Shown: piece by piece, positions 1 to 44,437 of the stretch | Numbering within the stretch: position 1 is the stretch's first letter | Layout of the letters: every line of letters starts with the position of its first letter | Virus record (IMG/VR): IMGVR_UViG_3300033158_000003 | Location: 1 to 44,437 of that record | DNA length: 44,437 nucleotides | Origin: a virus | Reading direction: 5' to 3' (one strand) | Notes under the pieces: model-generated | The model's input: only the letters and a program-made list of their open reading frames with translations | Told to the model about the DNA's origin: nothing | Database searches by the model: none | Translations under genes and position numbers: made by a program

Positions 1-569
1 GTGGTCGCAGTGGTTTTAGTGATGATGCTGGTAGCCGGCGGCACGAAGCCTGGCGGACAAGCCGTGCCGGTATCAGTAATAGCGACTTCACCGGCATTAA
101 TCCAGGCACCGATCCCGCGGGTCAGGTAGGGCAGCGTGGATCCGTTATCAGCCTGGCTATCCTGGTCAGAGCAGAAGGTGACCTCCATGTTTCGCTTGAT
201 CTGGACGATTGTCTTTTTAACCGCCCGCTGCATCTCACCGCGTTTGCCTATTCCCGCGACGTCGGAGACGTTCTGCGCCATGTCACTGACCATGAACGCC
301 TGACGAAACTTCTGAATCCTGCCGTGTGCCTTAGCGCGCTTGCTAGCAGGGTTTACGTAGTCAGTGTTTGCGACATCGACTCCATCAACGATACCGCCCA
401 GGACAGGGGCATCGTATGCATCCATCTGCCAGTCGTAGATCGTGTTGGCTGGCTCGGTGCCTTTGGGACACATCGAACTAAACGGTGTGTCCTTGTAATC
501 GACCATGGCGATCACATCCGCGAAATCCTCGCGTTTGCCGACCTGGATCGGCTCAGTTAAACTGGGCAT
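1..569 (-). CDS. Major capsid protein, N-terminal part (SU10/DUF5309 family), cut by window end
   Basis: Builds the icosahedral shell. Reading leftward from an ATG at 569, the frame encodes 189 residues beginning MPSLTEPIQVGKREDFADVI, with the typical early 'KREDFADVI...DTPFSSM' stretch of SU10-type (DUF5309) capsid proteins. The frame runs off base 1 without a stop. The rest of the protein is at 43964-44437; removing the 8-base end overlap fuses them in phase into 344 residues, a usual length for the family. The start overlaps the scaffold stop by coupling (TAAATG). Family assignment rests on recalled sequence pattern. Confidence 0.85.
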   Translation of the reverse strand, partial: MPSLTEPIQVGKREDFADVIAMVDYKDTPFSSMCPKGTEPANTIYDWQMDAYDAPVLGGIVDGVDVANTDYVNPASKRAKAHGRIQKFRQAFMVSDMAQNVSDVAGIGKRGEMQRAVKKTIVQIKRNMEVTFCSDQDSQADNGSTLPYLTRGIGAWINAGEVAITDTGTACPPGFVPPATSIITKTTAT

Positions 570-1586: not shown

Positions 1587-1719
1587 GGTTTACTAACCAA
1601 GAAAAGTGTGCATCCAGGGGATTAAAGGTTCCCCAGTGACCTTGGAGTGGTGTATTGCGTCTCTTCGTGGCAAAAAGCAAGCAGTTTTGCGCCACAATGT
1701 GCCACAAATAAGAGTTCAA
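1587..1719. promoter_or_regulatory. Divergent late control region
   Basis: 133 bp separating the leftward scaffold/capsid operon from rightward terL/portal, so it should drive both late transcripts. It contains two tandem 10-mers at 1688-1707 (TGCGCCACAA then TGTGCCACAA), a motif that recurs in other control regions of this genome. I do not find a convincing sigma-70 -35/-10 pair in either direction, consistent with a phage-encoded or host activator being required. An alternative long terL start at 1606 would read through it. Confidence 0.5.
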
Positions 1720-3330
1720 ATGAAGATTTTGCCGCATCCGGTATACCCGTTGCCCTCTTTTGAGGACTCGATCGCCGATCCGGTGCGAGTCAAAGAATAT
1801 CTGCTCAAGCGCAACGAGCTAATCGAGCTCGAACTGACCGATCCGTGGCGTTACGGCTACCGGCCGCCGGTCTGGAATCTGGTTGAAGCTGAAATCAATG
1901 CCGGTCAGCGCGAAATCCTCATCCTGGGCGGCAACCGGGCGAGCAAGAGCGAATATGCCGGCCGCAAAACGGTCGAGGCGCTGGATTCAGGCGAAAAAAA
2001 ACGCGTCTGGTGCCTGCAAACCAACGAAGCCAACTCAGTTGAAATGCAGCAGCCCATTGTCTGGCGCTACATCCCGATCGAGTACAAGGGACTCAAGAAA
2101 AGTCAGGTAACCAATATCAGCTACACCCAGAAAAACGGGTTCAGCGAAAACAAGTTCATCCTGCCAAACGGCTCGGAATGCGTATTCCGGAACTACGCCC
2201 AGTACGCGCAGGACAGCACGGTGGTCGAGGGCGGCGACTGCGACATGATCTGGTGCGACGAGCTGGTGCCGCTTAACCTGGTCGAGACATTGCGCTACCG
2301 GCTGGTCACCCGCGGCGGGATCCTGATTATTACTTTCACGCCGATCGAAGGTTACACGCCAACCGTTAAAGAATTCCTGGATGGGGCGCGCACCACGCAG
2401 TGGGCCCATGCCGAGCTACTGGGCGAGAAGGTGCCACGCGTCCAGCGCTGCGTCCGCAAAGGGAGCTCAATCGTCTATTTTCACTCTGCCGACAACCCGT
2501 TCGGCGGTTACGAGACGATGAAAAAGACACTGGCCGGCGCACCGAAAAACGAGATCAAGACCCGGGCTTACGGGATTCCAACCCGCGCGATCCTGGCCCG
2601 GTTCCCGAAATTCCGCGACTCGGTGCATGTGATCGAGCCTGAGCGGATCCCCAGGGAAGGCACCCGCTACCAGTTTGTCGATCCTGCCAGTGCCAGGAAC
2701 TGGTTCATGATCTGGGTCCTGGTCGACGCGCGCGATCGCCACTTTATATATAGAGAGTGGCCTTGCGAAGGCGTCTACATCCCCGGTATCGGTGACCCGG
2801 GTTCGTGGGCGGAAGCGGACGGGCGCAAAGCAGACGGGCGAGCCGGCCAGGCGCAGACTTCCTACGGCTGGGGCTTGGAACGTTATGTCCAGGAAATCGA
2901 AAGAGTCGAAACAACAGGGACAAGTCCGGAAGGAGAACCGGAACGTGAAGAAATTGTCGCTCGCTGGATGGATTCGCGGTTTGGCAACACGCCCAACCTC
3001 AAAAACGATGCCGCTACGACGATGATTGAAGAGTGCGCGTTGCTCGACTTGCCCTTCGCGCCCGCGCCGCTGGATCCGATCGAGGAAGGGGTGTCCTTGA
3101 TTAATTCGTTATTGGATTTTGATCCTGACAGTGGTAAAGAGCCGAAGCTTTTCATCTCGAGCGAGTGCAAGGCAGTGATCTTCAGCCTAAAGGTCTGGAC
3201 CGGGAAAGACGAAAAACTGGGCGCTTGTAAAGACCCGGTCGATTGCGTCCGCTGGATGGCTATCGCCGGCCTGTGCGACATCGGCGGCAGTCTGCAACTG
3301 GTTGACCCCATCGGCATCGATCCTCTATGA
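1720..3330 (+). CDS. terL: Terminase large subunit
   Basis: DNA-packaging motor: an ATPase that pumps DNA into the procapsid plus a nuclease that cuts it. From ATG 1720 the protein has 536 residues. Walker A variant GGNRASKS is at about 70-77, Walker B with catalytic acid (DMIWCDE) at about 175-181, and 'IITFTPIEGYTPTV' is the coupling motif region. The C-terminal half has RNase-H-fold acidic residues (FVDPASARNWFMIW, WMDSRFG, DPVDCVRW). A longer frame from 1606 exists, but its extra N-terminus runs through the GCCACAA control repeats and is not family-like. The stop overlaps the portal start (ATGA). Confidence 0.93.
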   Translation: MKILPHPVYPLPSFEDSIADPVRVKEYLLKRNELIELELTDPWRYGYRPPVWNLVEAEINAGQREILILGGNRASKSEYAGRKTVEALDSGEKKRVWCLQTNEANSVEMQQPIVWRYIPIEYKGLKKSQVTNISYTQKNGFSENKFILPNGSECVFRNYAQYAQDSTVVEGGDCDMIWCDELVPLNLVETLRYRLVTRGGILIITFTPIEGYTPTVKEFLDGARTTQWAHAELLGEKVPRVQRCVRKGSSIVYFHSADNPFGGYETMKKTLAGAPKNEIKTRAYGIPTRAILARFPKFRDSVHVIEPERIPREGTRYQFVDPASARNWFMIWVLVDARDRHFIYREWPCEGVYIPGIGDPGSWAEADGRKADGRAGQAQTSYGWGLERYVQEIERVETTGTSPEGEPEREEIVARWMDSRFGNTPNLKNDAATTMIEECALLDLPFAPAPLDPIEEGVSLINSLLDFDPDSGKEPKLFISSECKAVIFSLKVWTGKDEKLGACKDPVDCVRWMAIAGLCDIGGSLQLVDPIGIDPL

Positions 3331-5576
3331 ATTTTGCCGAAGTAAAGCGTTCGTTCACCTGGGCCCTGACAGAGGCCAGCAGCTACATCTCCTTTATATC
3401 TACGCTGGACGACAGCCGTTACTGCCGGTGGGCAGGGCAGACCTATGACGGGCGCAAGTGGAGCGCGAACACGGGCAAAGAAGTGTTCCCGTGGGAAGGC
3501 GCCTCCGATATCCGCCCCTATTTCATCGACGACCTGATCATCGACGACGTCGACATCATGCGCACCGCAGACAAGAACTGCCACATGCAGACTTTGCCGA
3601 CTAATTCGCTCTACCAGGAACAGGGAACGGCGACAACGGCAGTACTGGACTGGGTAGTGCGCAACATGATGGCGGAGGAACTGGACCGGGAAAAAGAACT
3701 CGCCGCGCAATGGCGCCAGCACTACGGCTCGAGCGTAATCGGGATCGACTGGTATCTGGATTTCGATTCCGAAGTGGTCACAGTCACCATGCAGGATCTG
3801 ATGCAGATGGCGATGATGGATCCGCAACTGCAGGCGTTTTTGGAATACCTGATGCGTAACGCGCAGCGGCTGTCGGGTAGCGATATCGCGCAGGCTGCGC
3901 GGATGTTAGCCATGTATTTTCCGGACCTGGCCAGTCCGCCGCAAACCCCTGAAGAAGTCATTGACCCGACCACTAAATCAGCGGGCCCGCCTCCCAAACC
4001 GACTTCCTACACGACCGATATGAGCGTGCGCAATCCCCAGGAAGCGCTCACGAGCCTGATGCGCACCGGGCAGTTTGCCTATGATCGCCCTTATATTAAA
4101 GAGAACCGCCCGTGCGTGACGGCCTACCGCACCTACCAGGACGTGTTTTTCTTTCGCAACACCTACGACTTGCAGCGCCTGCCCTGGATCGTGCGCCGGG
4201 ACGTTATCCCAAAATCGACTGTAATCGACCGCAGCCGATACGAGCGCTGGGATCCAAAGTTTACGACCGAGATCCTGGAGCGGGCCGGGAGCAGTGCGCT
4301 GCTGAATCTAGGCATGCAGACCCTGTTCCGGTTCAGGGACCGGCTCTATGTCGATGAGATGAAAGAGCTCTGCGAGGTCTATTACGGCTTTTACCGCGGG
4401 CAGGACGACAAGAACCGGCGCCAGACGCTGGTTACGATTTTCCATCCTAATTTCGAGTTGATCGGCCGCCAGTTGCCATTGCCATACGCGCACGGCAAAT
4501 ATCCTTTTGTCTTGTGCCAGCGGGAGCGCCGCAGCCGCTCAGCACTGGAAAGCCGTTCGGTAGGCGACGTCGCGATGACTGCCCAGGCTGAGATCAAGCT
4601 GCAAAAAGACAGTCGCAACGACCGGACAGCGCTCTGCACCATCCCGCCTTTGCAGGTGCCGCTGGGCAGAGGCAAACAACAGTACAAGCTCGGGCCCCGT
4701 GCGCAGCTGGGCGTTATGCGGCCCGGCGAACTAGCGTGGCTGCCGCCTCCTCCGCTTGATCAGACCACTTACCAGACCGAGATGAGCATCCGGCAGGATG
4801 CCTGCAATTATTTCGGTAAAAACATGGAGGGAGTCGACCCGAACAAGGCGCTGCGCAAGCAGCAGCGGCTGATCGATAACTGGCTGGGCGAGCTGCGCAT
4901 GGTGCACGTCCAGATTTACCAGCTTTGCCAGCAGTACCTGCCTGATGAGATCTGGATAACTGCCTCAGGAGATCAGTTGGTGGTGCCGCAGCGGGACCGG
5001 CAATCGATCCAGCGCAATTTGAATCTGGTGCTCGAGTACGACGCAAAAGATCTCAACACAGAGTTCGTCACCCAGAAACTGCAACTGATCCAGCAGATGT
5101 TAGTCACTACTGACGCCGCCGGCGTGATCGACCGCGCGGGCCTGACCATGTACGCGGCCAGAGCACTGGACCCGGCGCTGGCGCGGCAACTGATCCAGCC
5201 CCAGGCTGCGGTCAGCCAGCAGGAGATTAACGACGAGCAGGATCAGTTAAGCAAGATTGCAGACGGCATTGAGCCGCCTATGTACACCTCCGGCCAGAAT
5301 GCGCAGCTGCGCCTGCAGGTTATCCAGAACACCATGCAGCAGCAGGGCTACATCAACGCGCTCCGGCAGAACCCGATTGCGCTGCAAATTCTGGACCGGC
5401 GCGTACAGAATCTGCAGTTCCAGGTTACCCAGCAGCAGAACGCGATCACCGGCAAGCTCGGTGTCCAGCCGGGACCGACTCAGAGCCTTACCGGCACCGG
5501 GCCGGCGCCAGCTCCTCAGAGTCAGCTAATGGGCGGGGGCAGTTTCGGGGGCACCGGAGGAGGCAGTGGCGCATAA
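3327..5576 (+). CDS. Portal protein (podovirus-type, large)
   Basis: 749 residues, expected to form the dodecameric DNA channel at the capsid vertex. It directly follows and overlaps terL by four bases. It has the size and style of the long podoviral/SU10-type portals: an N-terminal alpha/beta region with 'FPWEGASDIRPYFIDDLI' (typical portal N-terminal motif), a central 'RERRSRSALESRSVGDVAMTAQAE' helix region and a long Q-rich helical C-terminal part (residues ~560-700), which in related portals forms a barrel or crown. The last ~40 residues are low-complexity G/P/Q. Confidence 0.9.
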   Translation: MNFAEVKRSFTWALTEASSYISFISTLDDSRYCRWAGQTYDGRKWSANTGKEVFPWEGASDIRPYFIDDLIIDDVDIMRTADKNCHMQTLPTNSLYQEQGTATTAVLDWVVRNMMAEELDREKELAAQWRQHYGSSVIGIDWYLDFDSEVVTVTMQDLMQMAMMDPQLQAFLEYLMRNAQRLSGSDIAQAARMLAMYFPDLASPPQTPEEVIDPTTKSAGPPPKPTSYTTDMSVRNPQEALTSLMRTGQFAYDRPYIKENRPCVTAYRTYQDVFFFRNTYDLQRLPWIVRRDVIPKSTVIDRSRYERWDPKFTTEILERAGSSALLNLGMQTLFRFRDRLYVDEMKELCEVYYGFYRGQDDKNRRQTLVTIFHPNFELIGRQLPLPYAHGKYPFVLCQRERRSRSALESRSVGDVAMTAQAEIKLQKDSRNDRTALCTIPPLQVPLGRGKQQYKLGPRAQLGVMRPGELAWLPPPPLDQTTYQTEMSIRQDACNYFGKNMEGVDPNKALRKQQRLIDNWLGELRMVHVQIYQLCQQYLPDEIWITASGDQLVVPQRDRQSIQRNLNLVLEYDAKDLNTEFVTQKLQLIQQMLVTTDAAGVIDRAGLTMYAARALDPALARQLIQPQAAVSQQEINDEQDQLSKIADGIEPPMYTSGQNAQLRLQVIQNTMQQQGYINALRQNPIALQILDRRVQNLQFQVTQQQNAITGKLGVQPGPTQSLTGTGPAPAPQSQLMGGGSFGGTGGGSGA

Positions 5577-5598
5577 AAACACAAAAAAGGAAAACAAC

Positions 5599-5832
5599 AT
5601 GGACGAAAAAACTGATTACCAGGGACCGGCTGAGCCGGGCACACCGCTCGAGCCGGATGAATTACCGGAGAGCCCGCCGGAGTTCCAGAAAGCGACTCAA
5701 GCTCCGCGCCAGGAAAAGGAGGTCCACCCCACGAGCGAACTCTCCAGTACGCCCCGGCATAAAGCCGGTAAACCCTCGAGCGGGACGCATCCGACCGCTG
5801 AACTGCACATCAAACCAAAGGGACGACGCTAA
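5599..5832 (+). CDS. Small acidic/basic disordered phage protein
   Basis: 77 residues from ATG 5599, preceded by AAGGA. A GTG at 5566 with a good GGAGG would add 11 residues and overlap the portal stop. Charged and proline-rich (PAEPGTPLEPDELPESPPE) with two similar words, 'HPTSELSSTPRHKAGKPSS' and 'THPTAELHIKPKG', suggesting an internal duplication. No domain recognised. Rightward late operon; its TAA overlaps the next ATG. Confidence 0.55.
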   Translation: MDEKTDYQGPAEPGTPLEPDELPESPPEFQKATQAPRQEKEVHPTSELSSTPRHKAGKPSSGTHPTAELHIKPKGRR

Positions 5833-5999
5833 TGGCTGAACTGGGAACTGAATTTGAGAAGCTTGACGAGATCCTCTCCATCCTGCGCCGGATCGAGGAG
5901 CGCCAGGTGCGCACTACCGCGATGGTGGCGCAAGTCAAGGAACACGAGGCGCCCGTGACCGGTTCCTTCGCCTCGAGCGATTTAGGAGACAAAAAATGA
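5832..5999 (+). CDS. Small coiled-coil protein
   Basis: 55 residues (MAELGTEFEKLDEILSILRR...). Residues ~5-40 form an amphipathic helix or coiled coil with regular leucine/isoleucine spacing. Starts on the TAATG overlap with the gene before and ends in an ATGA overlap with the next, so translation is coupled. Function unknown; its place after the portal suggests a minor head or connector role. Confidence 0.55.
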   Translation: MAELGTEFEKLDEILSILRRIEERQVRTTAMVAQVKEHEAPVTGSFASSDLGDKK

Positions 6000-6400
6000 A
6001 CAGACTTAAAGTCCCATTTGCTGATATCACAGACGAAGATCTCACAACGTTGCTTTCCAGGTGTCCGAACGCCTGGCAGGGCGATCAAGGGTTCCAGAAC
6101 TGGTGTGTGGACATGGTTAATCTGGCGAGCGGGCCGGCATCGCCTCCAGCCATTATTTCGATTGCTCCCAATACGGTGGCAGCCGGCGCACCCGATACCG
6201 TGATTACGGTAACCGGAACCGATTTCGCTTCCGGCGCCGTAGTGGTGACCAGCGCCGATCTGGCAACAACCTTTTTAAATCACCAGACGCTCACCGCGAC
6301 GATCCCCCTCTCGCAGCTTGCTGCTGCCGCGACGATTCCGGTTACGGTGCGCAATCCTGACAGCCAGGTCAGCGGCGCGCTTGATTTCACGGTCACCTAA
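5996..6400 (+). CDS. IPT/TIG-type Ig-like domain protein
   Basis: 134 residues. Residues ~1-45 are helical (ITDEDLTTLLSRCPNAWQGD). Residues ~50-134 form one IPT/TIG immunoglobulin-like domain: 'AIISIAPNTVAAGAPDTVITVTGTDFASGAVV' through 'TIPVTVRNPDSQVSGALDFTVT', with the typical PN/G-x-T-F spacing. Such Ig-like domains decorate phage heads or tails and bind carbohydrate weakly. Good Shine-Dalgarno (GGAG at about 5985). Overlaps the gene before by ATGA. Confidence 0.75.
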   Translation: MNRLKVPFADITDEDLTTLLSRCPNAWQGDQGFQNWCVDMVNLASGPASPPAIISIAPNTVAAGAPDTVITVTGTDFASGAVVVTSADLATTFLNHQTLTATIPLSQLAAAATIPVTVRNPDSQVSGALDFTVT

Positions 6401-6404
6401 AAGC

Positions 6405-6548
6405 ATGCCGATTAAAGGATCGATTCTTTATCCGTTCCGGTGGTTCTGGCGCCAGGACATCTCCACCCAGGTCCAGATCCCGACCAGCACAGGCGTGCCG
6501 CCTCCCAACCCAGCGCCAGTTAAAAGTGCCACCGTCCAGAAACGCTAG
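6405..6548 (+). CDS. Hypothetical 47-residue protein
   Basis: Starts ATG 6405, four bases after the TIG-domain stop, and overlaps the next gene. The sequence (MPIKGSILYPFRWFWRQDIS...PPPNPAPVK) has an aromatic N-terminal patch and a proline-rich tail. No family recognised. Called from operon packing only. Confidence 0.4.
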   Translation: MPIKGSILYPFRWFWRQDISTQVQIPTSTGVPPPNPAPVKSATVQKR

Positions 6549-6846
6549 GCTCACTGTGCCGGTGGTGCGCGTAGTCGACTCGATCGAGTTCCTGCCTGAG
6601 GTCTTGCCCAGTGTGTTGCGCGAGATTAACGAGCGGCAATGGGCCGCGGTTAAACAGGTCTTGATCGAGGCCAAGTACAAAGCCGAAAGCATGCTGCGCA
6701 ATGACGCGGTCTTCGATTCACCGGGCAAGGTCAGCTATTACCAGGGCTGGGTCGCTTATGCTGATTATGTGATCAGTTCGCTGGAGAGCCTGCGTGCCGA
6801 GTCCGGGCCAGAGCAAGCGTCTGAGCCGGAGCCGGGACCGGAATGA
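6526..6846 (+). CDS. Conserved phage protein of unknown function
   Basis: 106 residues from GTG 6526; a GTG near 6556 is an alternative start. The centre is helical and looks like a family recurrent in phages near the portal: 'QWAAVKQVLIEAKYKAESMLRNDAVFDSPGKVSYYQGWVAYADYVISSLE' (described in pieces). Acidic E/P tail. The start codon lies inside the preceding small gene and the stop overlaps the next ATG. Role not known; possibly a head-completion or packaging accessory. Confidence 0.6.
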   Translation: MPPSRNARLTVPVVRVVDSIEFLPEVLPSVLREINERQWAAVKQVLIEAKYKAESMLRNDAVFDSPGKVSYYQGWVAYADYVISSLESLRAESGPEQASEPEPGPE

Positions 6847-22332: not shown

Positions 22333-22528
22333 ACTTTCGGTAGTCGCTGAAACGATCCTGCGCAACACTTTAAGGGACAAGCGAGCGTTCGAACTGATCG
22401 AAGCACTCATTGCTGATCCTGAAGCTGACAGACGCCAACTGGTTATTACAGGTTTTGCGCTAGGCGCGGCAGCCGCCTTAAACGAAATGATGCAGGGACA
22501 TTTGATTAATGTCCATAGCAAGGGCTAG
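22301..22528 (+). CDS. Small helical protein
   Basis: 75 residues from GTG 22301 (AAGGA five bases upstream). Helices 'DELSVVAETILRNTLRDKRAFELIEALI' and 'LVITGFALGAAAALNEMMQGHL'. No family recognised. Its TAG overlaps the TAG of the convergent RHH gene. Confidence 0.5.
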   Translation: MRILPITNPDELSVVAETILRNTLRDKRAFELIEALIADPEADRRQLVITGFALGAAAALNEMMQGHLINVHSKG

Positions 22529-22701
22529 TGGTGCTTCTTTAGCCCTTTAATAATCAGCTCCTCAATCCACTGTGATCGCGTCTTTTCCGGAATCGTAGAG
22601 CGCAGGAGATTAGCTACTTCTGTCCGCAGCCGGATAATGATCGACAGCTTGCGCTCCTCATCCGGCGGTCTGCCGCTTCCTGGTCTGGGTCCGCCTCTCA
22701 T
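22525..22701 (-). CDS. Ribbon-helix-helix (CopG-like) protein
   Basis: 58 residues from ATG 22701: basic glycine/proline arm (MRGGPRPGSGRPPDEERK), strand 'LSIIIRLR', then helices 'EVANLLRSTI' and 'TRSQWIEELIIKGLKK'. This is the expected size and layout of a CopG/Arc repressor or a plasmid partition adaptor. Divergent from the 22815 gene, so it probably binds the 22702-22814 control region. A candidate binder of one of the repeat arrays in this genome. Confidence 0.65.
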   Translation of the reverse strand: MRGGPRPGSGRPPDEERKLSIIIRLRTEVANLLRSTIPEKTRSQWIEELIIKGLKKHH

Positions 22702-25358: not shown

Positions 25359-25700
25359 ATGTCAGACTACACTACTTCCTACGCGATCAGATACAGCACG
25401 CCGCACCTGAGCCAACAAACCGAGGTTGCGGTAGTCACTGCAGCCGTAAGCATACAGAACGAAGACCCTGGCACCGCCGATCACGCCAACCGCCTTCGTT
25501 GGGCAAATTGGGCAATTCCTAACTCAAGCGTTGCTTGGCAAGCGTTTGCATGGCCGGTCGCTAACAATCCGAGCATCGTTGCCGCGGTGACGGCTGATCC
25601 GAGCGGTCAGACGGTCGCTGATTCTGACGTTCAATTTGTGGTGAATTCTTACGTCGAAATCGTCATCACCGAATGGGTCGCTAACAACCCTGCTGCTTAA
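25359..25700 (+). CDS. Small structural protein downstream of the fibre
   Basis: 113 residues, beta-rich and uncharged (TSYAIRYSTPHLSQQTEVAVVTAAVSI..., 'NRLRWANWAIPNSSVAWQAFAWPVANNP'). It looks like a phage structural accessory seen after fibre genes; possibly a chaperone or capsid decoration. Starts 11 bases after the fibre stop. Confidence 0.55.
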   Translation: MSDYTTSYAIRYSTPHLSQQTEVAVVTAAVSIQNEDPGTADHANRLRWANWAIPNSSVAWQAFAWPVANNPSIVAAVTADPSGQTVADSDVQFVVNSYVEIVITEWVANNPAA

Positions 25701-25803
25701 GGTCTGGGGATCGCTTGCGGCGGCTGCTGCGATTGGCCGCCATGCGCTTTCTGGAAAGCTTTGCGCCAGACGATCACCTTGCGCCACCATTTTCCCCGCG
25801 CTC
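25701..25803. other. Non-coding spacer before the repeat array
   Basis: 103 bp after the structural gene with no supported gene. Includes short GC-rich stretches but no clear terminator stem with U-run. Confidence 0.3.
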
Positions 25804-25958
25804 GGTCTCGCTCATCCGTACTGGGTTGCTCGCAGTTCTTGGCTCGCTCCTTTGTTGTGGGTTACTCACCATGAATGGCTCGCTCTCCGGTCATTGGGTT
25901 ACTCAGTCTAGATGGCTCGCTTCAACGAGTTGGGTTTCTCATCTCGTATGGCTCATTG
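25804..25958. repeat. Nine-unit 18-bp direct repeat array
   Basis: Ten-base words begin at 25804, 25822, 25840, 25858, 25876, 25895, 25913, 25931 and 25949, i.e. spacing 18,18,18,18,19,18,18,18. They strictly alternate between type A (TGGCTCGCTC) and type B (TGGGTTACTC), with a few substitutions, separated by unrelated 8-9-base spacers. It fills the gap between the 25359 gene and the stop of the leftward gene at 25953. I see no open frame that uses it. The arrangement suggests an iteron, centromere or packaging-type protein-binding array. Confidence 0.75.
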
Positions 25959-26243
25959 CGCCAGTTCCTCCAGCGCTAAAGCCAGCATCACTTCGCCTTC
26001 CTTGCGCACATCCTCGGCCAATTCGCCCAGCCGATTGACCAGTATGGTCGTCAGAAATTCCATCACCTTGACGTGCTGGTAGATCCGGTTGCGCGCCAGT
26101 TCGCTGCCAAAGTGCTGCAGCATTAACTGGTAGACCATGCGCCAGTATTCGCGCCGGGTTTGGCACGCGTGAGGCAGCTTGCCGTCGTTGACCAGATCCT
26201 TGATCACCACGATCGCCATCTCTGTCAGCCGCTCCCACTTCAT
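25953..26243 (-). CDS. Helical hypothetical protein
   Basis: 96 residues, nearly all helix ('REYWRMVYQLMLQHFGSELARNRIYQHVKVMEFLTTILVNRLGELAEDVRKEGEVMLALALEEL' in parts). No motif recognised. Start overlaps the upstream stop (ATGA). Its stop lies in the last unit of the 18-bp array. Confidence 0.5.
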   Translation of the reverse strand: MKWERLTEMAIVVIKDLVNDGKLPHACQTRREYWRMVYQLMLQHFGSELARNRIYQHVKVMEFLTTILVNRLGELAEDVRKEGEVMLALALEELAQ

Positions 26244-26776
26244 TGAGACCTCGCGCTCACGGGTTGAATCACGGTCAGCGTGCCACTGAAAAGCGGCGTC
26301 ACGATCGGCGTAGGGGACGCAGGCGACTGTACCATGCGGACCTCGTAGAAATACGGCACCGCTTGCATCGTCGCGGTGACAGTGGCGGAAACGGTCAGCC
26401 AGGTCGTGCCTTGAGTCGGAGTGGTGGTCTCAGTCCAGTCGACCTCGACCACACTGGGATCAGTGTCCGGAATGCTCAACGACGTCTTAGCCGTAAACAG
26501 GAACTCGAATCCCGTGATATTGACCGGTTGCGTGTTCCCGTTTGCGTCCTTGACCGTCAGCGCAATCTGGCTTGAGAGCGTAGCGCCTTGCTCGACACAG
26601 AGGTTCAAGCCCGGCGGCCCGCAGGAAGGACACGGCTGGACCGGAGGCGAAGGCGTCGTTGTCGAAGGGGTAACCGGAACGTTCGCACTCGAAGGACCAA
26701 TCGGAGTCCGCTGGATCTGAGTCTGATAGCGGATCGCAGCCAGATTCGGCATGTCCAGACTGGGCATGTGCCACAT
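26240..26776 (-). CDS. Putative virion protein with Ig-like/BppU-type domain
   Basis: 178 residues (ATG 26776; ATG 26767 or 26752 possible). N-terminal ~60 residues are proline/threonine-rich with 'PCPSCGPPGLNLC'. Residues ~65-175 form a beta-sandwich like the N-terminal domain of baseplate upper proteins ('EQGATLSSQIALTVKDANGNTQPVNITGFEFLFTAK...VPYFYEVRM'). Likely a tail or fibre accessory. Its start is overlapped by the TGTGCCACA tandem motif. Confidence 0.5.
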   Translation of the reverse strand: MWHMPSLDMPNLAAIRYQTQIQRTPIGPSSANVPVTPSTTTPSPPVQPCPSCGPPGLNLCVEQGATLSSQIALTVKDANGNTQPVNITGFEFLFTAKTSLSIPDTDPSVVEVDWTETTTPTQGTTWLTVSATVTATMQAVPYFYEVRMVQSPASPTPIVTPLFSGTLTVIQPVSARSQ

Positions 26777-34465: not shown

Positions 34466-35281
34466 TCAACCTTTCTTCACGGTCCCAAAATAATCGGGAA
34501 CCAGGCCGTATTCGGGCGCCGCTCCGGACACGTTTACCAATTCAGTTTTCATTTTCGGGCAAAAGACTTTCTGACCATGGATCCGTTTGTCGACGCACCG
34601 GATGCAGACCTCATACCAGTCGGAGTTGGGCGTCTTGTCAGGCAGCTCGCGCCTGGTCACCAGGTCGTAGCGATCGGTCTGGTAGGGCACGTCGAATCGC
34701 TCGGTGTAGTCCCAGATGTCGTCATGGGTCCACTCTTTCAGCGGGAAAACGAAGTCCGGACCTTCATCGCGGTAAACGACACGGGAATGCAGCGGCACCA
34801 GTCCGAAGATCTGGTCTTCGTCGCAGTCCTTGTGCGCGACCAGAGCCGCGTCCCACGGATAAACATAGACGCAGACGGGACGCATCAGGAAGTTGAGCCC
34901 GCAAAGGAACTTGTCCGGATCGTCGCCGTCTTTAAATTCGAGCGCATTCTTCAAAACTGCCAAATTGGAGTTCGCGCCCGTTTGGTATTCGCTTACCAGC
35001 GCAACGATCTCCTTACCGTGCATCAGCGAAGTCTTTTGCGGCGGGTAATCGTGGACCTCGAGGTTGTAGAGGTTGATTACCTGGTCGGCAAACGCATTTT
35101 TTCGAGGAAACCAAGGGTCACGATGATAAACGACGGGAATCCGGACATTGCGCGACAAGAGCAAGTGCAGCAACACAGTCGAGTCTTTCCCGAAACTGCA
35201 GTACAGCACCGGGAGACGATATTTCCTGAACTGTTCGGCACAGAATTCGAACGTCTCTTTTATCTTATCGTCCAGACTCAT
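34466..35281 (-). CDS. PAPS reductase/ATP-PPase family protein
   Basis: 271 residues, adenine-nucleotide alpha-hydrolase fold. PP-loop CSFGKDSTVLLHL (S29-T35), 'VVYHRDPWFPRKNAFADQ', 'RVVYRDEGPDFVFPLKEWTHDDIWDYTERFDVPYQTDRYD', which is the PAPS-reductase/DndC-like pattern, plus C-terminal cysteines (CIRC, FCP). Might act in sulphur metabolism, nucleic-acid thiolation or nucleotidylation; no dnd partners are seen. Unusually, it sits inside the virion operon and overlaps the SET gene. Confidence 0.8.
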   Translation of the reverse strand: MSLDDKIKETFEFCAEQFRKYRLPVLYCSFGKDSTVLLHLLLSRNVRIPVVYHRDPWFPRKNAFADQVINLYNLEVHDYPPQKTSLMHGKEIVALVSEYQTGANSNLAVLKNALEFKDGDDPDKFLCGLNFLMRPVCVYVYPWDAALVAHKDCDEDQIFGLVPLHSRVVYRDEGPDFVFPLKEWTHDDIWDYTERFDVPYQTDRYDLVTRRELPDKTPNSDWYEVCIRCVDKRIHGQKVFCPKMKTELVNVSGAAPEYGLVPDYFGTVKKG

Positions 35282-35669
35282 GGCTTATCATTTTGCGCTC
35301 GTAGTCTGCGTCTGACTCCGGAGGCACGGTGAGCTCGGTTCCTGCCGCAATATCGACAGCGGCAATCAGGATATATTCACGTTCCTGCACACCACCTAAG
35401 CGCAGATTGGCCTCTTCGCCGCGGCGCGGAAAATTGAGAAACTGCGCTTCGTCGATGCATAGCACCAGTTCATTGGATTGGTTAAGATACCCACGCTGTT
35501 TTGCGTAGTCTCTAAGCTTGCGTTCCCAGTTTTCGACTATCCATGCCGGCCAACGCTGGTCGACGTGATCAAACATCCAAACAACCTGTCCCTGGTAAAT
35601 ATCAATCGCGGCAAAGACCCCTTGTCCATGGATCTCTGATTTTCTGATTTCGACTGGAACGGTTAACAT
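35265..35669 (-). CDS. SET-domain protein (putative lysine methyltransferase)
   Basis: 134 residues, a minimal SET domain. 'IRKSEIHGQGVFAAIDIYQG' (res 8-27) is the SET-N motif; 'FLNFPRRGEEANLRL' (77-91) stands where NHSCxPN normally is, keeping the asparagines; 'YILIAAVDIAAGTELTV' (99-115) is the SET-C motif. The usual catalytic tyrosine after GEEL is not in place (GTELTVPP), although Y123 is near. Would use S-adenosylmethionine to methylate a protein. Between virion genes, so a virion or host protein is the plausible substrate. Confidence 0.75.
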   Translation of the reverse strand: MLTVPVEIRKSEIHGQGVFAAIDIYQGQVVWMFDHVDQRWPAWIVENWERKLRDYAKQRGYLNQSNELVLCIDEAQFLNFPRRGEEANLRLGGVQEREYILIAAVDIAAGTELTVPPESDADYERKMISHESGR

Positions 35670-43963: not shown

Positions 43964-44437
43964 TTAAGCAGTCGGTGCGACTTTTGCTAACCCGAGCGGG
44001 TTATAGATCACAAGGCCGCAGATCGCGTCTACGTAACCCCTTGGACCACCACCCAGATTCGGGTTTTCCTGGTAACCAGGCATCCGGTTATACCGCAGCT
44101 CGAACTGGTCCCAGTCACAGAAGTAACCGCGCCCGTTCATGATGTTAGCAGCGGATGCTCCGGTGGGCAGCCCTGCCAGAAACAGGCTCAAAATCAGTTT
44201 AACGCTCCCAAAATCGCCTTGCCAGAAATCGACCGTCGCGATGATCGATTTGCTGGTCGCGTCCTGGTTATACCGGCGCAAGGGCACCGTGGAGACCGCG
44301 CTCGGCACCCAGGCGGCAAATGAACTGAACAGTTTCTTTAACGCTGTGCCGCAGATCAGATCGAAATCCTTCTGTTGGCCGGTCTGATGATAGACCGATT
44401 CCATCGCGGCGTTGATATCGTCTTCGATCGTGGTCGC
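43964..44437 (-). CDS. Major capsid protein, C-terminal part, cut by window end
   Basis: Continuation of the capsid gene that starts at 569. From the window edge the frame reads ATTIEDDINAAMESVYHQTG and goes on to the stop at 43964. The first codons repeat the last codons of the N-terminal part (GCG ACC AC), so the joined protein reads ...TKTTATTIEDDINAAMESV.... The C-terminal 'RRYNQDATSKSIIATVDFWQGDFGSVKLIL' and 'DWDQFELRYNRMPGYQENPNLGG' segments look like the beta-rich C-terminal part of DUF5309 proteins. The ATG at 44404 is internal, not a start. It is followed 14 bases downstream by the next virion gene. Confidence 0.85.
   Translation of the reverse strand, partial: ATTIEDDINAAMESVYHQTGQQKDFDLICGTALKKLFSSFAAWVPSAVSTVPLRRYNQDATSKSIIATVDFWQGDFGSVKLILSLFLAGLPTGASAANIMNGRGYFCDWDQFELRYNRMPGYQENPNLGGGPRGYVDAICGLVIYNPLGLAKVAPTA

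What the first reader, a model, noticed from the sequence alone, without database searches (positions are those of the whole stretch)
25804..25958. Strictly periodic, alternating nine-unit 18-bp array in a non-coding gap
Two 10-mers, A (TGGCTCGCTC) and B (TGGGTTACTC), alternate A-B-A-B-A-B-A-B-A at 18-bp steps (one step of 19), separated by unrelated 8-9-base spacers. Conserved words with diverged spacers mean selection for binding sites, not recent duplication. Read leftward, it gives E-R-A-x-x-x / E-(Q,K,stop)-P-x-x-x, so a decayed hexapeptide-repeat gene is an alternative. Candidates: plasmid-style iterons, a centromere bound by the RHH protein (22525-22701), a packaging start site, or a transcription-coupled control site. 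I know no described phage element of this form.
Basis: seen in the sequence. Interest (0 to 1): 0.8.

Follow-up and report, generated by a model that had tools for sequence, protein, structure and literature searches.

The report
Phage guide-RNA array lacking its effector
The repeats are a TIGR array, a recently described phage counterpart of CRISPR arrays that makes short two-part guide RNAs, sitting here in an apparently complete temperate phage that has no recognisable gene for the Tas protein such guides need.

Summary
On the minus strand it reads (5'-truncated edge)-[spacer-loop-spacer-edge]x4, with edge GAGCGAGCCA, loop GAG(A/T/C)AACCCA and 8-nt spacers. This is a TIGR (Tandem Interspaced Guide RNA) dual-repeat array as defined by Faure et al. 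2025 (PMC12045711): alternating 10-mers, ~36-nt units, CCA box C, A-rich loop, truncated edges at both ends. The experimentally validated TIGR array of Salicola phage CGphi29 has nearly the same edge (AAGCGAGCCA). I found the same arrays in more than 100 other viral stretches; 91 of 125 with at least two units also carry a Nop-domain Tas gene. Across the family, all six frames have stops and 503 of 510 spacers are distinct, so they are guides, not codons or binding sites. The unusual part: the window is a circularly closed ~44.4-kb integrase-encoding phage with no detectable Tas. The array came with a 96-aa ORFan as a cassette absent from all relatives examined at that site, on the strand of the late genes. 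Most likely it supplies tigRNAs to a Tas encoded elsewhere (host, prophage or co-infecting phage); a decoy or a stranded relic are the rivals. No target could be identified.

The parts
25804..25958 (-). TIGR dual-repeat array: four guide units (read on the minus strand)
   Evidence: Alternating repeats, spacer and unit length, and terminal truncations match the published definition; same repeats in many Tas-encoding phages
25949..25958 (-). 5'-truncated edge repeat (CAATGAGCCA; only ..GAGCCA kept); overlaps the stop codon of the 96-aa ORF
   Evidence: other arrays begin the same way with only GCCA kept
25931..25940 (-). Loop repeat 1 (GAGAAACCCA); flanking spacer A 25941-25948 TACGAGAT, spacer B 25923-25930 ACTCGTTG
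25913..25922 (-). Edge repeat 1 (AAGCGAGCCA; identical to the Salicola CGphi29 edge)
25895..25904 (-). Loop repeat 2 (GAGTAACCCA); spacer A 25905-25912 TCTAGACT, spacer B 25886-25894 ATGACCGGA (9 nt, the 19-bp step)
25876..25885 (-). Edge repeat 2 (GAGCGAGCCA)
   Evidence: family consensus
25858..25867 (-). Loop repeat 3 (GAGTAACCCA); spacer A 25868-25875 TTCATGGT, spacer B 25850-25857 CAACAAAG
25840..25849 (-). Edge repeat 3 (GAGCGAGCCA)
   Evidence: family consensus
25822..25831 (-). Loop repeat 4 (GAGCAACCCA); spacer A 25832-25839 AGAACTGC, spacer B 25814-25821 GTACGGAT
25804..25813 (-). 3'-truncated edge repeat (GAGCGAG then ACC)
   Evidence: other arrays end the same way with GAGCG
25953..26243 (-). 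96-aa ORF immediately upstream of the array, start overlapping the stop of the preceding gene; inserted together with the array; no homologue found
   Evidence: no relatives, no Pfam, not a Tas; helical model, mean pLDDT 82; no fold match at E<=0.001
25697..25792 (-). ~30-codon small gene homologous to one in relative G015; apparently without a start codon here; marks the downstream edge of the inserted cassette
   Evidence: DNA alignment with L234 4908-5022
26240..26776 (-). 178-aa gene conserved in relatives; marks the upstream edge of the cassette
   Evidence: 48-67% identical in six related records; phrog_1084

Best explanation
The feature is a TIGR guide-RNA array transcribed leftward (minus strand), probably as part of the late operon that runs through the 96-aa ORF. 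The transcript would be cut in the edge repeats into four ~36-nt tigRNAs, each holding two 8-nt (once 9-nt) spacers flanked by box-C/D-like repeats. Because this circularly closed phage genome has no recognisable Tas gene, the guides most likely work in trans: a Nop-domain Tas from the host, a resident prophage or a co-infecting phage would load them and bind (or cut) DNA matching spacer A on one strand and spacer B on the other, with a competing mobile element as the likely target. Shown: array identity, family membership, non-coding nature, position, cassette structure, absence of a detectable Tas. Inferred: transcription, processing, trans-use and the class of target.
For: Architecture: alternating 10-mers, 8-nt spacers, 36-bp unit, CCA ends, A-rich loop, 5'- and 3'-truncated edges. 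The validated Salicola phage CGphi29 array next to its tasH reads AAGCGAGCCA-8N-AAGACAACCA-8N and ends in a GAGCG-type truncated edge before a terminator. The 3-unit strict pattern finds 50 viral stretches, most with the same alternating edge/loop arrays; 91 of 125 loci with >=2 units carry a Tas. The Tas profile hits solved TasH at E 1e-70, TasR at 1e-47 and IS621. 503 of 510 spacers distinct and stops in all six frames. Loci with the same edge and the GAGTAACCCA loop (L008, L020, L045, L091/L209) encode ~270-aa TasA-like proteins. No Tas in the window: hmmsearch --max gives only noise (about 6 bits or less) and the 26-row profile nothing at E<=0.1. The genome closes: an 8-bp end overlap restores the major capsid frame. 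Several other long array contigs also lack Tas.
Against: No expression or processing data. No target above chance: tandem-spacer matches with mismatches in relatives equal shuffled controls or reduce to one conserved site, and exact matches in viral contigs fall in phages unrelated to the window. No promoter-like site and no terminator-like site just downstream of the array on the minus strand. One unit is 37 rather than 36 nt. No Tas-encoding partner from the same host or sample was identified.
Confidence: 0.75

Rival explanations
1. Stranded relic: the array and the 96-aa ORF were captured by recombination from a Tas-encoding phage and now have no function.
For: No Tas in the genome; the cassette is absent from relatives; small array; one 9-nt spacer; the downstream small gene appears to have lost its start codon.
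Against: All internal edges and loops fit the family consensus, truncated ends are intact, the array is in the sense orientation of the late genes, and several other long contigs carry Tas-less arrays.
Confidence: 0.3
2. RNA decoy: the phage makes tigRNA-like RNAs to titrate or misdirect a Tas deployed by a competitor, as solitary CRISPR repeat units do against Cas proteins.
For: Repeat-compatible Tas proteins exist in other phages; the array is without an effector and downstream of late genes.
Against: Four units with four different spacer pairs are more than a decoy needs; no precedent for TIGR found in the papers searched.
Confidence: 0.12
3. The phage encodes its own, highly diverged Tas that the profiles miss.
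For: Many window genes have no known function; Tas proteins are only ~25% identical to each other.
Against: The profile reaches IS110-type transposases yet gives no signal in any frame of the window; the 96-aa neighbour does not match; genes shared with array-less relatives are unlikely candidates.
Confidence: 0.1
4. DNA-level binding array (iterons, centromere, packaging or control site).
For: Short conserved words at regular spacing, some 3 kb from an RHH-like gene (22525-22701).
Against: RHH homologues occur in relatives G004 and G017 that lack the array; the same words accompany Tas genes in many unrelated phages; an alternating two-word layout with truncated terminal edges is that of TIGR arrays.
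Confidence: 0.02
5. Decayed gene for a hexapeptide-repeat protein.
For: 18 bp is six codons; one + strand frame is open through the array.
Against: Stops occur in all six frames across 45 family arrays, and no frame is consistently open; repeats are conserved at synonymous sites; five of six frames in the window array are closed.
Confidence: 0.01

Closest known systems
SpTIGR-TasH array of Salicola phage CGphi29 (NC_020844; Faure et al. 2025)
   Same: Edge AAGCGAGCCA (window GAGCGAGCCA or AAGCGAGCCA), A-rich loop ending in CCA, 8-nt spacers, 36-nt unit, truncated terminal edge
   Different: Salicola array has ~10 units, directly follows tasH and ends in a terminator; the window has 4 units, no tas and no terminator-like site after the array
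TIGR arrays with TasA-like genes in metagenomic phages (L008, L020, L045, L091/L209)
   Same: Same edge and same loop variant GAGTAACCCA/GAGAAACCCA, 18-bp steps
   Different: They carry a ~270-aa Nop-domain gene beside the array; the window carries none
Virus-borne mini-CRISPR arrays and solitary repeat units (from memory)
   Same: Effector-less guide array in a virus that would depend on a machinery encoded elsewhere
   Different: Unrelated repeats, a single 25-36-nt repeat type, Cas rather than Tas

Membership tests
TIGR dual-repeat array | Two distinct alternating repeats of 8-12 nt | tested here: met
   Two 10-mers alternate nine times
TIGR dual-repeat array | Short non-repetitive spacers (8-9, up to 12 nt), ~36-nt unit | tested here: met
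   Seven 8-nt spacers and one of 9; units of 36 (one of 37)
TIGR dual-repeat array | Both repeats end in CCA (box C); loop repeat A-rich | tested here: met
   GAGCGAGCCA and GAG(A/T/C)AACCCA
TIGR dual-repeat array | Array starts with a 5'-truncated and ends with a 3'-truncated edge | tested here: met
   CAATGAGCCA at 25949-25958 and GAGCGAGACC at 25804-25813; same in other arrays
TIGR dual-repeat array | Rho-independent terminator after the array (described as typical, not obligatory) | tested here: not met
   No minus-strand terminator-like site near 25804
TIGR dual-repeat array | Transcribed and processed to 36-nt tigRNAs | not testable with these tools
   Needs RNA
TasR-type TIGR array | Repeats start with UG (box D) | tested here: not met
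   Repeats start GAG/AAG, as do the Salicola TasH repeats (AAG); so TasA/TasH-like, not TasR-like
Complete TIGR-Tas system | Nop-domain Tas gene in the same genome | tested here: not met
   No match in the window with three profiles at maximum sensitivity or in the genome search; genome closed by end overlap
CRISPR array | Single repeat type of ~25-36 nt with similar-sized spacers | tested here: not met
   Two 10-mers, 8-nt spacers
Hexapeptide-repeat coding sequence | An open frame through the repeats in the family | tested here: not met
   Stops in all six frames over 45 arrays

The most novel reading that the evidence does not exclude
Effector-less TIGR arrays are a recurrent class of late-expressed phage cargo: guide cassettes carried without Tas that exploit, redirect or inhibit a Tas encoded by a co-resident element, the TIGR analogue of virus-borne mini-CRISPR arrays or RNA anti-CRISPRs, possibly helped by a small partner protein such as the 96-aa ORF.
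Probability: 0.35. Interest if true: 0.78.

Novelty: new variant of a known kind. Interest (0 to 1): 0.52.

Why it matters
The natural role of TIGR-Tas systems is an open question, and the founding study found arrays through their Tas genes, so Tas-less arrays would have been missed. A small, closed temperate phage with four guides and no effector gives a compact test of whether tigRNAs act in trans between mobile elements. The repeat profile found here also makes arrays findable without a Tas gene.

Tried and rejected
Relatives by the 96-aa ORF and by the 1583-aa structural protein: none by this method. Rfam and tRNA scans: nothing. Close relatives searched for the array: none. Fold search of the 96-aa model and PDB sequence search: no credible match. 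Target search in own genome, relatives and viral contigs: not above chance. RNA folding of single units: three of four unstructured; unit 1 folds because its two spacers are partly complementary. Coding and iteron readings rejected. blastn of the array against named phages: only chance matches.

Full report
OBSERVATION. The nine alternating words are present at the stated coordinates with 18-bp steps and one 19-bp step. Surrogate sequences give chains of at most three words (200 first-order Markov surrogates, both strands); the window gives eight at two mismatches. The pattern is real.

WHAT IT IS. A strict three-unit pattern scan of IMG/VR returned 50 viral stretches. Translating and printing them showed, in most, the same alternating words with unrelated spacers and no consistent frame, in arrays of up to about 67 words. 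Blasting the ORFs of these loci against each other showed one protein family in most of them, of the type GxGxxxAxxxxxDIxKAxTVSxxWxFAGL, and a second, unnamed family recurring in 19 loci (the published TIGR loci have an occasional ParB-like partner, which this one may or may not be). The first family has weak Pfam hits to Transposase_20 of IS110, and its profile matches solved TasH (E 1e-70), TasR (1e-47) and IS621. These are TIGR-associated Tas proteins.

COMPARISON WITH THE PUBLISHED DEFINITION. Faure et al. 2025 (PMC12045711) define TIGR arrays as two distinct alternating 8-12-nt repeats (edge, loop) separated by short spacers, processed to 36-nt tigRNAs, starting with a 5'-truncated edge and ending with a 3'-truncated edge, with CCA (box C) ends and, in TasR arrays, an A-rich loop. 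Read on the minus strand the window array is CAATGAGCCA-TACGAGAT-GAGAAACCCA-ACTCGTTG-AAGCGAGCCA-TCTAGACT-GAGTAACCCA-ATGACCGGA-GAGCGAGCCA-TTCATGGT-GAGTAACCCA-CAACAAAG-GAGCGAGCCA-AGAACTGC-GAGCAACCCA-GTACGGAT-GAGCGAGACC: four complete units and both truncated ends. The experimentally characterised Salicola phage CGphi29 array has edge AAGCGAGCCA, loop AAGACAACCA, 8-nt spacers and a truncated GAGCG edge before a terminator. Across 641 edges and 674 loops from 89 loci the consensus is GAGCGAGCCA and GAG(A>T)(A>C)A(C/A)CCA, and the window repeats fit it.

NOT CODING, NOT A BINDING ARRAY. Over 45 long perfect runs all six frames have stops and 503 of 510 spacers are distinct, close to the number expected for random 8-mers. 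The RHH-like gene suggested as a centromere binder has homologues in array-less relatives G004 and G017.

THE PHAGE. The window's ends overlap by 8 bp (GCGACCAC). Joining them restores one frame of an SU10-type major capsid protein whose two halves match the single capsid gene of relative G017. The record is therefore, within assembly error, a complete circularly permuted genome of about 44.4 kb, although the database classes it as linear. It encodes a tyrosine integrase and so is probably temperate. TerL relatives at 60-83% identity were found. At the syntenic position they carry an Ig-like 106-aa gene (G004, G017) or a ~30-codon gene (G015), and neither the array nor the 96-aa ORF. In the window the 96-aa ORF and the array lie between the 178-aa gene and a homologue of the G015 small gene, so ORF and array form one inserted cassette. 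The stop codon of the ORF lies inside the first truncated edge and the array is in the sense of the late-gene strand, which makes read-through transcription plausible (inference; no promoter-like site was found).

NO TAS. Three Tas profiles at maximum HMMER sensitivity give at most about 6 bits in the window, and the 26-member alignment finds nothing at E<=0.1. The 96-aa ORF is not a Tas, has no homologue and is predicted helical. Of 125 loci with at least two units, 91 have a Tas in the stretch held. Among those without one that I then searched across the whole record, eight have it elsewhere, while several long records do not (G030 72.6 kb, G031 89 kb, G035 50 kb, G036 51 kb, G042 36 kb, G045 28 kb, G050 80 kb, G054 47 kb). 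These may be incomplete, so they support but do not prove that Tas-less arrays recur. Loci sharing the window's edge and its GAGTAACCCA loop carry ~270-aa TasA-like proteins without an obvious nuclease domain; these are the best candidates for a compatible effector.

TARGETS. With the published geometry (spacer A on one strand, spacer B on the other, gap 0-2; the order of the two halves is my deduction from the published 3' overhangs) I found no match with up to two mismatches in the window, and matches in relatives at the level of shuffled controls apart from one site conserved in several related records, two mismatches from unit 2. Exact matches to units 2 and 3 in viral contigs (2 and 83 stretches) lie in phages with no detectable similarity to the window. 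Targets remain unknown, as for TIGR systems in general.

VERDICT. Ordinary in kind (a TIGR array), unusual in context (a closed phage genome with guides and no effector). Identity is close to certain; the trans-acting role is an inference. In the scan of species genomes a strict four-unit form occurs in only four contigs, all from metagenome-assembled genomes, consistent with a mainly viral element.

Noticed in passing
window 1-569 and 43964-44437: The record is classed linear, but its ends overlap by 8 bp and together encode one complete SU10-type major capsid protein, so the genome is probably complete and circularly permuted.
   Followed up: yes
window ~1606-6846: TerL, portal and two following genes are inverted relative to the capsid block compared with relatives G004 and G017, where all lie on one strand. 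True inversion or assembly artefact not decided.
   Followed up: no
G030, G031, G035, G036, G042, G045, G050, G054 (loci L013, L019, L040, L043, L063, L080, L115, L218): Other long viral contigs with TIGR-type arrays and no detectable Tas gene.
   Followed up: partly
L241, L243, L244 (Dehalococcoidia MAGs), L242 (Spirochaetaceae MAG): The only genome-collection contigs with the strict four-unit pattern; the three Dehalococcoidia MAGs have no Tas match. Possibly proviruses or binned viral contigs.
   Followed up: no
L017 427-1128: A ~234-aa gene ends where the Tas gene starts, with relatives in about 19 array loci; no Pfam match. It could be the published TasParB-like partner.
   Followed up: no
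window 25923-25948: Spacers A and B of unit 1 are partly complementary (ACGAG / CTCGT), so this unit alone folds unusually well (z -3.1).
   Followed up: partly
window 34469-35281 and 35268-35669: PAPS-reductase-like protein and a weak SET-domain-like protein encoded side by side among structural genes, both conserved in relatives.
   Followed up: no
window 5996-6400: Protein with two similar copies in each of two relatives and a third similar to the Ig-like gene that occupies the array's site in G004 and G017.
   Followed up: no
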